Below are positions 10,738 to 15,259 of a stretch of DNA of 33,527 nucleotides, in pieces. The number at the start of each line of letters is the position of its first letter. Within the stretch, counting starts at the first letter, position 1. The notes beneath the pieces were generated by a model. The model did no database searches. It worked only from the letters and a program-made list of their open reading frames with translations, and was not told the DNA's origin. The stretch comes from Candidatus Puniceispirillum sp. (GTDB taxonomy: Bacteria; Electryoneota; RPQS01; DYHQ01), in contig DYHQ01000009.1 of assembly GCA_020724065.1 (NCBI GenBank), forward strand, positions 1 to 33,527, in the 5' to 3' direction. Made by a program: the position numbers and the translations under genes.

Positions 10738-11685
10738 ATGGTTTCGTCCGTTAGCGGTGCGCCGCCAACCCCTTCGACGGCACCCGCGCGACAAGTAACT
10801 GCGGAGGCCTGCCGCAACTGCATCTTAGATGACCTCAAGGGTGCTCTTCAGCTTCTGGATATTTCCGATGAGACGAGACAGCGAGTTCTCTCGGAGGGCG
10901 AGCGCTTTCTCTCCGGCGAATTTGAACTCTCGCGCGCTCCTTCCTATTACATTACGGCGGTTCATCGGCAATTGAAACGAATGACCGGAATGGCTGTGCC
11001 TTTTGCGGAACTGCGGCGTGCAGGCAACGAAGTCGGATTGCTGCTTTCGGAGAAGTTGCGACGGCAATTGACATCCCTGCCGCAGAAAGAAGGTTTTCGA
11101 CTCGCCGTCGAGTGGGCTATAGCAGCCAATCATCTTGACTTCCGCACAGTCGGAACCGGCTATGGATTCGCGCCCGACGAGATTGAAGAAATACTGAAGG
11201 CAAAACTGGCCAAGGGATTCGCTATTGATGAGTTCGACATGCTTTGGGACATTGTCCACACTGTGCGGAAAGTCCTCTACATACCGGATAATGTGGGCGA
11301 ATTGGCTTTCGACAGCATCGTGTTGGATTATTTGCGAGATTTCGGCTGTCATACGGTTGTTCCCTACCGAGGTGGACCGATTACTTCGGATGCGACTCGG
11401 GAGGATTTCGACTTCTTGAATACGCAGGCTCATGCGGGCGAAGTGATTTGCGCCGGACCGGACACCTTGGGGATTTCTTTGGAAGAAGCGAGTGATGAGC
11501 TTCGGGCAGCGCTGCAACGCGCCGAACTCATCGTCACGAAAGGTCAAGCGAATTTCTACACGATGTATTCAGCACAAGATAGCCTTCGGGGGCGAATCGT
11601 GTGTCTTTTCACCTGCAAATGCGATGTCGTGGCGAATCTTTTCGGACTCAGCGGGAAAATCAATATCATGAAGGTTCTGAAGTGA
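10738..11685 (+). CDS. DUF89 / ARMT1-like damage-control phosphatase family protein
   Basis: N-terminal CRNCILDDLKGAL, RRAGNEVGLLLSEKL, AIAANHLDFRT, YIPDNVGELAFDSIVLDYLR, VTKGQANFYTMY, LFTCKCDVVANLFG. Confidence 0.85.
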   Translation: MVSSVSGAPPTPSTAPARQVTAEACRNCILDDLKGALQLLDISDETRQRVLSEGERFLSGEFELSRAPSYYITAVHRQLKRMTGMAVPFAELRRAGNEVGLLLSEKLRRQLTSLPQKEGFRLAVEWAIAANHLDFRTVGTGYGFAPDEIEEILKAKLAKGFAIDEFDMLWDIVHTVRKVLYIPDNVGELAFDSIVLDYLRDFGCHTVVPYRGGPITSDATREDFDFLNTQAHAGEVICAGPDTLGISLEEASDELRAALQRAELIVTKGQANFYTMYSAQDSLRGRIVCLFTCKCDVVANLFGLSGKINIMKVLK

Positions 11686-12254
11686 AAGCACGCATGGGTC
11701 TTCCAAACAAAATTACGCTCTCTCGCCTGGCTCTCGGGCCACTCTTTCTCATTGTCTATTTGACTGACTGGCCGGGTGCCAAACTCGGAGGACTCATTAT
11801 TGCCATTCTCGTCGAGGTGACGGACATCGCGGATGGCTGGATGGCGAGAGCTCGCGGAGAAACCTCTGAAGTCGGCAAATTACTCGACCCTATGGCCGAT
11901 TCGGTCGCGCGGATTTCGTGCTTCATCGGCTTCTTGGTTTACGGGTATGCCGCCGCGTGGATGGTGGCTGTGCTGGTTTACCGCGATGTCGGCGTGGCGT
12001 ATGTGCGCACATTAGCCGCTTTGCAGGGCGTGGCGGTCGGTGCGCGTCGCAGTGGGAAATGGAAGGGTGCCATTCAGGGAACTGCAGCGATCACGATTCT
12101 CACGCTTGATCTTCTGAATATTCCTTGGCTTCAGTCGCATTTCCTGAAGATTGTCTTTTTCCTCATGCTCCTCGTGACCCTGTACACGGGATTTACTCTC
12201 GTGGACTACATCTGGGGCAATCGCAAGATACTGCGTGAGCTGCATTGGCGATAA
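11682..12254 (+). CDS. pgsA: CDP-alcohol phosphatidyltransferase (phosphatidylglycerophosphate synthase-like)
   Basis: NKITLSRLALGPLFL and the complete catalytic motif DIADGWMARARGETSEVGKLLDPMAD. The listed ORF starts at 11601 inside DUF89; GTG 11682 or ATG 11694 is more likely. Confidence 0.85.
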   Translation: MKARMGLPNKITLSRLALGPLFLIVYLTDWPGAKLGGLIIAILVEVTDIADGWMARARGETSEVGKLLDPMADSVARISCFIGFLVYGYAAAWMVAVLVYRDVGVAYVRTLAALQGVAVGARRSGKWKGAIQGTAAITILTLDLLNIPWLQSHFLKIVFFLMLLVTLYTGFTLVDYIWGNRKILRELHWR

Positions 12255-12255
12255 T

Positions 12256-14763
12256 ATGCTCGAAAAGAATAGAAACGACATCAATTTTCAAATTCCTCCT
12301 CTTGCTCATACTTCCATGTATAATTGGCACAAATACTGGGCCAGAAAGACATGGAATGTTGTGGGGGAATGGATCGAGGCTTATACGCCCGAAGGTGGAA
12401 TTATTATTGACCCATTTATGGGAAGCGGCGTCGCCGTTATCGAGGCGATTCGGAGAGGTCGGAGAGCAATAGGGATTGACTTGAATCCCATCGCTGTCGA
12501 AATCGTTGATTTGACACTCCGCCATGTTGACACAAAGGCCTTAACTCAATCGTTCGAGAAGATCGAGCGAGCAGTCAGTGAAAACATTGAAGAGCTGTAT
12601 AAAACAGAGTGCAGAAGCTGTCATGCGGAAATTGACGCCGCCTGCTTCATCTGGAATCGAGGCAAACCGGAATCGGTTCGCTATGAGTGCAATGAATGTG
12701 GAAGTCGAGAGGAGAAAGGTCGGAGACTCAAGCCTCGAGATCGAAAAATTCTCAAGAGGGCCGAGGAGTTGCTGCAATCATCAAGGGCGTGGTATCCACA
12801 AGATGCTCTATACTACCCAGACGGTTCGCCTTTCAAAGAGAAGCAGAAATACGAGAGCATTCCTGACCTGTTCACCATCCGCAATCTCTACGCACTCGCG
12901 CTTCTGATGCGTCAGATCGAGAAGGAAAAAGATGAACTTCTGAGACGCTTCCTTAAGATCACTTTCTCCTCCATGGTGCATAATTGTTCAACTATGATGC
13001 CTGTTGGCAATCCGGCTGACACAAATCATTACACTTTTTTCAGCAGCCCCGGCTGGACTCAACATTCTTACTGGCATACTCCTCGCTTCATGGAGCAGCC
13101 GGTCTGGCGAAAATTCAAGAGCGCGTTTGAAGGACATCAAGGGATTCTGAAAGCCAAGGAAGAATCGGCAGAAGTCTTCAAGAAACCGGTTCGTTTTGCC
13201 AAGACCGTTGAGCAGTTCTTAGACGGAAAAGCCGATGTTCTTCTGGTTTGTGGCTCTGCTTTGAGCACACTGCGTCACTGGCGCAAGAAGAGAGCTCTGT
13301 CCGAATACACTGACTTCTGTTTCACGGATCCTCCATACGCCAGCTCGATACAATATGGCGAATTGAGTTTCATGTGGGCGAAATGGCTCGGGCTTAACGG
13401 AGGCTATCTGCAGGATCTGTGTGAACATGAAGTCGTTGAGAATCCGCGACAAAAAAAGGATTTCGCCTATTATGAGGGGATGCTCTCAAGTACGTTGGGC
13501 GAGCTCAGCACGGCTCTTAAGCCTGGCGCTCACATGGTGCTTACCTTCCATAATCCGACCTTCAAAGTGCGCAACGCCACAATCCGCGCCGCCGTCCGCA
13601 AGGGATTCGACTTCGAGAAAATCCACCACCAACCCACGGCTGTCGTTTCAGCGAAGAGCCTTCTGCAACCTTTCGGCTCAGCCACCGGCGATTTCTACCT
13701 TCGGTTCGCCAAACCGTTTTTGCAGGAGGCGACTCCGCTCGCGCAATGGGACGAGAAACGATTTGAGCGCGTCGTCGTGGATGGCGTTCAGCACTTGCTG
13801 GCCGAGCGTTGGGAACCGACGCCATACACATTCATCATCAACTATATTGATCCACTGCTTGCCCGTGAAGGTTTCTTTCAAGAGCTGTATCCCGGTCTCG
13901 ATGTGAACACGGTGTTGAAGAACCATGAGGGCGAGGAATTTATCACCGTAGATGTGAAGATCGGCGGACAAACGGGCAAGGCGTGGTGGTTCAAACATAC
14001 CGAAAAAATCAAGATGAAAGGGATTCCTCTGGGTGAAAGAGTCGAACAGTGTGTGCTTCGCGAGCTTCTATCAAAACGCCGGGTTACATTCACGGATGTC
14101 TGGCGACGCGTCGGAGAAGAGTTCCCCAACAGCCTGACGCCCGATGCCTTGAGCATTCGGGATGTCATCCGCGAGTATGCCAAGGAGGCGCGCGGAGGTG
14201 AGTGGCAGATTCTTCCCAAATTCCAAGAACGCGTGAAGCAACATGCATTGATGATCTGGATTCTTGGCAATTTGGGAAAATCCTTGGGATATGGCATTTG
14301 GGTAGGACGCAACGAACAGAAGGAACTTACACCTTCGAGCGAGCAGCTTTCTACTCTCGTTACGACGAAAAGAGACGAATTCCTATCCGGTTCAAAGGAG
14401 GCCGTGCGTGCCGTTTCCGACATCGATCTCATCTGGCTGAAGAAAAATGAGATTGTGAGAGTTTTTGAAGTGGAATATTCCACAAGCATCACATCTGCAA
14501 TTGAAAGGTGTTCTCATCTTCCCAAGCAAGTATCCCGCTATATCGTTTTGCCGGAGGAGCGAACAGCTAAACTGAAACGAAAACTGGAGTCTCCATTTTT
14601 CAAGCAGGGTCTGCAGGGCCAAGGATGGAGGATTGTTCTTTTTGACAGAGTTTTGGACAATAGGGAGGCACTCCTGAAAGGAAAACTTGACATCGCAAGT
14701 CTCGAATGGGACTATATGAGTGACCCGCTGAAGCGTGATCGTGGACAACTGGTTCTCATTTAG
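12256..14763 (+). CDS. Large DNA methyltransferase (N6_N4-type motifs) with internal CxxC...CxxC and possible C-terminal nuclease-like domain
   Basis: MYNWHKYWARKTWNVV, SAM motif DPFMGSGVAVIEAIRRGRRAIGIDLNP (~12409), CRSC...CNEC (12610-12699), catalytic TDPPYASSIQYGELSFMW (~13324), C-terminal SDIDLIWLKKNEIVRVFEVEYSTSI (~14416-14490). ATG 12256 lies one base after the pgsA stop. Confidence 0.88.
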   Translation: MLEKNRNDINFQIPPLAHTSMYNWHKYWARKTWNVVGEWIEAYTPEGGIIIDPFMGSGVAVIEAIRRGRRAIGIDLNPIAVEIVDLTLRHVDTKALTQSFEKIERAVSENIEELYKTECRSCHAEIDAACFIWNRGKPESVRYECNECGSREEKGRRLKPRDRKILKRAEELLQSSRAWYPQDALYYPDGSPFKEKQKYESIPDLFTIRNLYALALLMRQIEKEKDELLRRFLKITFSSMVHNCSTMMPVGNPADTNHYTFFSSPGWTQHSYWHTPRFMEQPVWRKFKSAFEGHQGILKAKEESAEVFKKPVRFAKTVEQFLDGKADVLLVCGSALSTLRHWRKKRALSEYTDFCFTDPPYASSIQYGELSFMWAKWLGLNGGYLQDLCEHEVVENPRQKKDFAYYEGMLSSTLGELSTALKPGAHMVLTFHNPTFKVRNATIRAAVRKGFDFEKIHHQPTAVVSAKSLLQPFGSATGDFYLRFAKPFLQEATPLAQWDEKRFERVVVDGVQHLLAERWEPTPYTFIINYIDPLLAREGFFQELYPGLDVNTVLKNHEGEEFITVDVKIGGQTGKAWWFKHTEKIKMKGIPLGERVEQCVLRELLSKRRVTFTDVWRRVGEEFPNSLTPDALSIRDVIREYAKEARGGEWQILPKFQERVKQHALMIWILGNLGKSLGYGIWVGRNEQKELTPSSEQLSTLVTTKRDEFLSGSKEAVRAVSDIDLIWLKKNEIVRVFEVEYSTSITSAIERCSHLPKQVSRYIVLPEERTAKLKRKLESPFFKQGLQGQGWRIVLFDRVLDNREALLKGKLDIASLEWDYMSDPLKRDRGQLVLI

Positions 14764-14794: not shown

Positions 14795-15259
14795 ATGAAA
14801 CGGTTGACACTCTTCATCGAGACAATTGTCACGACTGGACTGGGAACGGGATTCGCCCCGATTGCGCCGGCGACAGCGGCGAGCGCGTTGGCGTGTGTCG
14901 TCTTGTGGTTTCTGCCGGGCGCTCGAAGTTGGCCGGGACTGCTTTTCGTGTTTCCATTCTTCTTTGTTGGAGTATGGCTGGCCGGGCGCGGAGAGCAACG
15001 CTATGGACACGATGGGAAACCGATTGTCATTGACGAACTCCTGGGGCAGTGGATTACTCTTTTTTTCGCGTCGTCTTCGCTCTCGACTTTCATCGCCGCT
15101 TTTCTTCTCTTTCGGCTCTTTGATGTGTGGAAACCTTTCGTGATTCGCCAAAGTCAGAAACTTCCTCGTGGATGGGGAGTGATGGTAGACGATGTTTTGG
15201 CCGGTGTGTTGGCCCTAATATGCTCGCGGCTCTTGACTCTGACACCATTTTTTTCGTAG
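14795..15259 (+). CDS. pgpA: Phosphatidylglycerophosphatase A
   Basis: GLGTGFAPIAPATAASALA, VIDELLGQWITL, FRLFDVWKPFVIRQSQKLPRGWGVMVDDVLAGVLA. Confidence 0.92.
   Translation: MKRLTLFIETIVTTGLGTGFAPIAPATAASALACVVLWFLPGARSWPGLLFVFPFFFVGVWLAGRGEQRYGHDGKPIVIDELLGQWITLFFASSSLSTFIAAFLLFRLFDVWKPFVIRQSQKLPRGWGVMVDDVLAGVLALICSRLLTLTPFFS

What the first reader, a model, noticed from the sequence alone, without database searches (positions are those of the whole stretch)
12256..14763. Possible single-chain modification/restriction-like protein: methyltransferase with CxxC insert and C-terminal PD-(D/E)XK-like module
Sequence shows an FMGSG SAM motif near residue 55, a DPPY catalytic motif about 300 residues later, a CxxC...CxxC pair between them, and ~450 residues after DPPY. 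The far C-terminus contains SDIDLIWLKKNEIVRVFEVEYSTSI, which looks like the D...ExE core of a PD-(D/E)XK-like fold after a conserved helix (HALMIWILGNLGKSLGYGIWVG). DPF-GSG type motifs are common in beta-class enzymes, where DPPY precedes GSG; here the order is reversed, as in alpha or permuted enzymes. The nuclease fold is inference; it could be a DNA-recognition module only.
Basis: partly seen in the sequence, partly recalled or inferred. Interest (0 to 1): 0.62.

Follow-up and report, generated by a model that had tools for sequence, protein, structure and literature searches.

The report
Solo-gene DNA methylase fused to nuclease
One bacterial gene, dropped alone into a lipid-synthesis operon, appears to encode both halves of a DNA-defence system (a methylase that marks the cell's own DNA and a nuclease that cuts unmarked DNA) in an unusual order that joins a BREX-type methylase to a restriction-enzyme module.

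Summary
Window 12256-14763 encodes an 835-residue protein with a DPFMGSG SAM motif, a CxxC...CxxC insert, DPPY, a winged-helix region and a C-terminal D...ExE module. The C-terminus is significantly related to the PADLOC Type II restriction-enzyme model PDLC03534 (E 2e-8). In 33 relatives, D724 is 33/33, E738 32/33 and E740 28/33. The same module occurs in an apparent two-gene R-M pair, fused to EVE modified-base readers, and in plasmid proteins annotated as Type II REases. AlphaFold gives the expected strand order, but Foldseek found no significant fold match, so the fold is supported rather than proven. The methylase half is of the BREX type-3 (PglXI) kind, yet no BREX gene lies nearby. A same-family genome without the gene has pgsA and pgpA adjacent, so it arrived as a single gene. 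A 42% identical paralogue sits alone between nuoF and nuoG. Best explanation: a self-sufficient single-chain R-M enzyme with N-terminal methylase and C-terminal nuclease, an order for which the one precedent I found is BtgZI. Related genes include forms with degenerate methylase motifs and forms with a degenerate nuclease motif. Activity is untested.

The parts
12256..14763 (+). Whole gene: N-terminal DNA methyltransferase, winged helix and C-terminal PD-(D/E)XK-like (ExE) module, 835 aa
12409..12429 (+). SAM-binding motif I, DPFMGSG (res 52-58)
   Evidence: sequence; Pfam N6_N4_Mtase res 25-83 against profile 160-218; degenerate in L028/L029
12586..13290 (+). Insert between motif I and DPPY (res ~111-345), probable target-recognition domain
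   Evidence: PADLOC PglXI match res 159-451; BrxXI description of a ~250-residue insert TRD with a 4-Cys Zn finger (PMC12839542); insert boundaries inferred
12610..12699 (+). Four-cysteine (CxxC...CxxC) zinc-finger-like motif, C119/C122/C145/C148
   Evidence: all four invariant in alignment A3 of 11 full-length relatives; zinc binding inferred
13327..13338 (+). Catalytic motif IV, DPPY (res 358-361)
   Evidence: invariant in A1; TSPPG/TSPPR in L028/L029
14029..14211 (+). Winged-helix-like segment (res ~592-652)
   Evidence: AF2 H592-607 H612-622 H632-641 and strands; Foldseek hits to winged helices, prob up to 1.00 but E 0.008-0.1
14221..14655 (+). PD-(D/E)XK-like nuclease module (res ~656-800)
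   Evidence: PADLOC REase_II PDLC03534 E 1.9e-8; HMM and conservation across 33 proteins; AF2 order H-E-E-E-H-E, pLDDT mostly 70-94
14425..14427 (+). Predicted catalytic D724
   Evidence: 33/33 conserved; start of strand 725-729
14467..14475 (+). Predicted catalytic E738-V-E740 (ExE)
   Evidence: E738 32/33, E740 28/33; end of strand 732-739
11601..12254 (+). Upstream neighbour: pgsA-like CDP-alcohol phosphatidyltransferase (longest ORF; true start may be downstream)
   Evidence: Pfam CDP-OH_P_transf; directly followed by pgpA in G025, G031, G028 and G027
14795..15259 (+). Downstream neighbour: pgpA (phosphatidylglycerophosphatase A)
   Evidence: Pfam PgpA; start

Best explanation
A self-sufficient, single-gene restriction-modification enzyme. 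The N-terminal half (res 1-490) is a DPPY-type, probably N6-adenine, DNA methyltransferase of the BREX-type-3 kind, whose target-recognition domain with a 4-Cys zinc finger is inserted between the SAM motif and DPPY. A winged helix (res ~592-652) joins it to a C-terminal PD-(D/E)XK-like nuclease with a D-x13-ExE active site. Both activities share one recognition site: methylated host DNA is spared and unmethylated incoming DNA is cut. The gene moves between genomes on its own and lands inside housekeeping operons. Shown: domain content and order, conservation of motifs, homology of the C-terminus to restriction endonucleases, and single-gene insertion. Inferred: nuclease fold and activity, methylated base, shared specificity and a defence role.
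For: Methylase motifs intact. REase_II profile hit to the C-terminus, E 1.9e-8. D724/E738/E740 conserved across 33 domains while the rest of the domain diverges fastest (56% identity to L009 against 69-82% in the methylase and linker regions). The same module occurs behind winged-helix domains, one copy convergent with an N6_N4 methylase gene 25 bp away (L112); in EVE fusions (L032 E 2.3e-5, L035), and EVE-PD(D/E)XK proteins are described as putative Type IV enzymes (PMC7641849); and in plasmid proteins annotated as Type II REases. The full architecture is conserved in KSB1, Rokubacteria, Elusimicrobia and Dehalococcoidales MAGs. Solo insertion: pgsA-pgpA adjacent in the same-family genome G025; the paralogue L002 sits between nuoF and nuoG, which are adjacent in G025. 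Precedent for the domain order: BtgZI (PMC4081073).
Against: Foldseek of both AF2 models gave no hit at E<=0.001, a PDB profile search found nothing, and hhalign with one small PD-(D/E)XK-like protein was not significant. Active-site ExE is rarer than ExK. Stand-alone relatives on plasmids have no methylase beside them, and two distant full-length relatives have degenerate methylase motifs, so the module does not always work in a classical R-M pair.
Confidence: 0.7

Rival explanations
1. Orphan (epigenetic) methyltransferase whose C-terminal REase-like domain is catalytically silent and serves DNA binding or oligomerisation.
For: A sister group of ~905-936-aa solo methylases carries the same domain with E740 replaced by V, i.e. 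probably dead; no significant fold hit; ExE rather than ExK.
Against: In the window's own clade D, E and E are all retained (E738 is Q in one distant member) while the rest of the domain drifts; the E-to-V forms are a separate clade.
Confidence: 0.17
2. Modification-dependent or abortive (Type IV- or Pgl-like) effector: the methylase-like half is chiefly a DNA or modification sensor and the nuclease acts on modified or invading DNA rather than on unmethylated cognate sites.
For: The module is fused to EVE modified-base readers elsewhere; two homologues from the Chloroflexota-side search have lost GSG and DPPY yet keep D and F(E/Q)VE.
Against: The window protein keeps every methylase motif, and the closest relatives with a methylase N-terminus do too.
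Confidence: 0.1
3. Not defence: a regulatory or housekeeping gene belonging to the phospholipid operon.
For: It starts one base after the pgsA stop and probably shares its transcript.
Against: Absent from the pgsA-pgpA site in G025, G031, G028 and G027; relatives sit at unrelated sites, lysS and nuoF/nuoG; rare in phyla, 4/39, 3/301, 1/95 and 1/82 genomes.
Confidence: 0.02

Closest known systems
BtgZI (Type IIC/IIG; PMC4081073)
   Same: N-terminal methyltransferase with SAM motif before DPPY (alpha order) and C-terminal variant PD-(D/E)XK in one chain
   Different: BtgZI's variant replaces E by Q; here the motif is D...ExE, the methylase is Pfam N6_N4/PglXI-like with a 4-Cys insert, and a winged helix precedes the nuclease. 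No sequence comparison with BtgZI could be made here.
BrxXI/PglXI methyltransferase of BREX type 3 and the MTase of DUF499 BREX-related systems (PMC12839542)
   Same: Methylase core with a large insert TRD carrying four cysteines; PglXI profile E 6.6e-30 for the window protein, 9/9 relatives match
   Different: No BREX genes alongside; the C-terminus carries an intact REase-like module instead of the described triad of HTH domains; single-gene element. The paper reports no homologues of the insert TRD outside BREX; here the PglXI match covers most of the insert in a non-BREX solo gene.
Canonical Type IIC/IIG enzymes (Eco57I, MmeI, BpuSI)
   Same: Nuclease and methylase in one polypeptide
   Different: Those have an N-terminal nuclease and a gamma-class (NPPY) methylase; order and class differ here
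EVE-PD(D/E)XK putative Type IV endonucleases (PMC7641849)
   Same: L032/L034/L035 carry the same nuclease module behind an EVE-like domain (Pfam significant for L032 only)
   Different: The sensor there is a modified-base reader, not a methylase

Membership tests
Type IIC/IIG restriction-modification enzyme | Methyltransferase and endonuclease domains in one polypeptide | tested here: met
   Domain level only; activities not tested
Type IIC/IIG restriction-modification enzyme | Usual (not obligatory) order: N-terminal PD-(D/E)XK then gamma-class NPPY methylase | tested here: not met
   Nuclease is C-terminal, motif is DPPY after GSG; BtgZI shows the class admits this order
Type IIC/IIG restriction-modification enzyme | SAM-dependent or SAM-stimulated site-specific cleavage and methylation | not testable with these tools
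   Needs biochemistry
PD-(D/E)XK superfamily | Conserved D...(D/E)X(K/E) residues | tested here: met
   D724 33/33, E738 32/33, E740 28/33
PD-(D/E)XK superfamily | alpha-beta-beta-beta-alpha-beta core fold | tested here: inconclusive
   AF2 secondary-structure order fits, with D at the start and ExE at the end of a hairpin, but no Foldseek hit at E<=0.001
BREX type 3 | BrxXI/PglXI-type methylase with 4-Cys insert TRD | tested here: met
BREX type 3 | Operon with BrxC-like ATPase, PglZ, helicase | tested here: not met
   Neighbours in the window and of relatives are housekeeping genes
BtgZI-like enzymes | Sequence homology to BtgZI | not tested
   BtgZI sequence not obtained

The most novel reading that the evidence does not exclude
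A mobile one-gene defence family in which a BREX-3-type methylase was joined to a D...ExE nuclease, and whose halves can be lost separately (nuclease-degenerate solo methylases; methylase-degenerate proteins that keep the nuclease residues), so that some members are not R-M enzymes but methylase-derived sensors driving a nuclease.
Probability: 0.25. Interest if true: 0.7.

Novelty: new variant of a known kind. Interest (0 to 1): 0.5.

Why it matters
If active, it would be a second example of a single-chain R-M enzyme with N-terminal methylase and C-terminal nuclease, and it would link BREX type-3 methylases to stand-alone restriction. The natural series (both halves intact, nuclease degenerate, methylase degenerate, module swapped onto EVE or winged-helix sensors) gives a ready-made set for testing how self/non-self discrimination is rewired. 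Because specificity and cleavage reside in one gene, it is also a source of new site-specific enzymes.

Tried and rejected
Foldseek of the C-terminal (res 500-835) and full-length AF2 models against the PDB, and of the C-terminal model against BFVD: no significant hit; top PDB hit FokI E 3.7e-3, otherwise winged helices and methylases. PDB sequence searches with the protein, its C-terminus and the 28-row domain profile: only methylase matches, none for the nuclease. hhalign against a 135-aa PD-(D/E)XK-looking neighbour in L035: aligns D and ExE/ExK but is not significant. Searching viral contigs with the protein: none; with alignments: one BREX-like methylase, one partial relative, one divergent methylase fusion and EVE fusions. 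Considered and rejected: methylase-only protein (significant REase homology); part of a BREX operon (no BREX neighbours); integral part of the pgsA-pgpA operon (empty sites in relatives). Junctions compared by eye: no obvious duplication or repeat at the insertion site.

Full report
WHAT IS THERE. The ORF at 12256-14763 (+) encodes 835 aa. The window lies in a MAG (G000:C28) whose nearest named relative found here is a candidate division KSB1 bacterium. The protein has DPFMGSG at 52-58, C119xxC122 and C145xxC148, DPPY at 358-361, and H663...G678 followed by D724...E738-V-E740. Pfam N6_N4_Mtase matches residues 25-83 with the END of its profile, so the SAM motif precedes DPPY. The insert and DPPY region (159-451) match the BREX type-3 methylase model PglXI at E 6.6e-30, and all nine members of alignment A1 match it. 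The C-terminus alone matches PADLOC REase_II PDLC03534 at E 1.9e-8.

RELATIVES. Full-length relatives (41-71% identity) occur in KSB1-type MAGs (L009, L015), Rokubacteria (L010), Elusimicrobia (L011), an unnamed bacterium (L012, cut by its contig end), Dehalococcoidales (L013) and L016, plus a paralogue in the same genome, L002. They are rare: 4/39, 3/301, 1/95 and 1/82 genomes of the four phyla searched. Two more distant full-length proteins (L028, L029) have FAHSD/FCQAD in place of FMGSG and TSPPG/TSPPR in place of DPPY, but keep D and FEVE (L028) or FQVE (L029).

THE C-TERMINAL MODULE. An HMM of the domain finds it in 33 proteins. Across these, D724 (33/33) and E738 (32/33) are the two most conserved columns and H663 is 30/33. 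E740 is 28/33; the five exceptions (E to V) are exactly the long solo methylases L080, L083, L084, L085 and L087 (~905-936 aa where complete), a separate clade with support 1.00. Architectures: (a) this methylase fusion; (b) a second methylase fusion without the four-cysteine insert (L033, L074-L077); (c) a short N-terminal, winged-helix-like segment plus the module, 246-262 aa (weak Pfam hits only: HARE-HTH 0.013, forkhead 0.004), one of which (L112 5635-6423) lies tail-to-tail 25 bp from an N6_N4 methylase gene (PF01555, E 1.1e-59), i.e. an apparent two-gene R-M system; (d) EVE-like + module (L032 Pfam EVE E 2.3e-5; L034 subthreshold; L035 by similarity to L032); (e) ~415-aa stand-alone proteins on plasmids, many annotated 'type II restriction endonuclease'. 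EVE-PD(D/E)XK fusions are published as putative Type IV endonucleases (PMC7641849). These contexts are why I read the module as a nuclease.

STRUCTURE. AlphaFold2 models of residues 500-835 (pLDDT 71; most of res 654-816 at 70-94) and of the full protein (pLDDT 70) give helix 654-676, strand 680-683, strand 725-729, strand 732-739, helix 745-752, strand 760-765. D724 lies at the start of one strand of a hairpin and E738/E740 at the end of the other, as in PD-(D/E)XK enzymes; an ExE variant is known from BamHI (own knowledge). Foldseek, which could only be run on whole models, returned nothing at E<=0.001; FokI was the top PDB hit for the C-terminal model at E 3.7e-3. The fold is therefore supported by homology and topology, not demonstrated by structural match.

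GENOMIC SETTING. The gene starts one base after the stop of a pgsA-like gene and is followed by pgpA and cinA. In the only same-family genome searched (G025) pgsA is followed by pgpA after ~41 bp with no gene between, and they are also adjacent in G031, G028 and G027. The paralogue L002 sits alone between nuoF and nuoG, which are adjacent in G025. L009 and L015 sit directly behind lysS. The unit that moves is thus one gene. Its G+C is 0.50 against mostly 0.52-0.57 for neighbours. The nuclease module is the fastest-diverging main domain (56% to L009 against 69-82% for methylase and linker) although its D/E/E residues are kept.

COMPARISON. The standard review of Type II enzymes says most Type IIC enzymes have N-terminal nuclease and gamma methylase, with at least one exception, BtgZI: N-terminal alpha methylase and C-terminal variant PD-D/EXK with Q for E (PMC4081073). 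The window protein has that order. Its methylase, however, resembles BREX type-3 BrxXI, whose ~250-residue insert TRD has a four-cysteine zinc finger and, according to the authors, no homologues outside BREX (PMC12839542). Here such a methylase occurs without BREX genes and with an intact REase-like C-terminus where BrxXI has three HTH-like domains. Relationship to BtgZI at sequence level was not tested.

VERDICT. Most likely a single-gene R-M enzyme: a new variant of the Type IIC kind (0.7). The main rival is a methylase with a silent REase-like domain (0.17), supported by the E-to-V clade but not by the window's own clade. Open issues are the stand-alone modules without methylases and the methylase-degenerate homologues, which suggest that the module can also work outside classical R-M.

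Noticed in passing
L017, L018, L019, L020, L116 (plasmids): Stand-alone ~415-430-aa relatives of the C-terminal module have no methylase beside them; in Hymenobacter, Cupriavidus, Variovorax and Enterococcus they lie next to copper or metal-resistance type genes (copper oxidase, CopE/CzcE, CopY-family regulator, DUF305/DUF4396). The recurrent co-location is unexplained.
   Followed up: partly
L010 3437-4078; L011 615-1181: A small gene with UPF0758 (RadC) N-terminal helix-hairpin-helix domains, two stretches each, overlaps the start of the methylase-nuclease gene in Rokubacteria and Elusimicrobia: a possible accessory partner (Pfam PF20582).
   Followed up: partly
L028 1450-3960; L029 1326-3905: Full-length homologues with degenerate SAM and DPPY motifs but a retained nuclease D and FEVE/FQVE: apparently methylase-dead forms.
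   Followed up: partly
L108, L109, L110, L111: Solo ~905-936-aa PglXI-like methylases inserted among housekeeping genes, carrying the REase-like domain with E740 replaced by V.
   Followed up: partly
L003 1399-4032 (same genome, contig C127): A related methylase is followed directly by a 364-aa protein with no Pfam hit whose sequence FIDDIPFDLKV looks like a D...DxK nuclease motif: a possible two-gene R-M system.
   Followed up: no
L021, L022 (plasmids pND2a and pSpe): MTase-only relatives of the N-terminal half sit beside DUF2357 and AAA (or uncharacterised) genes, a different partner set.
   Followed up: no
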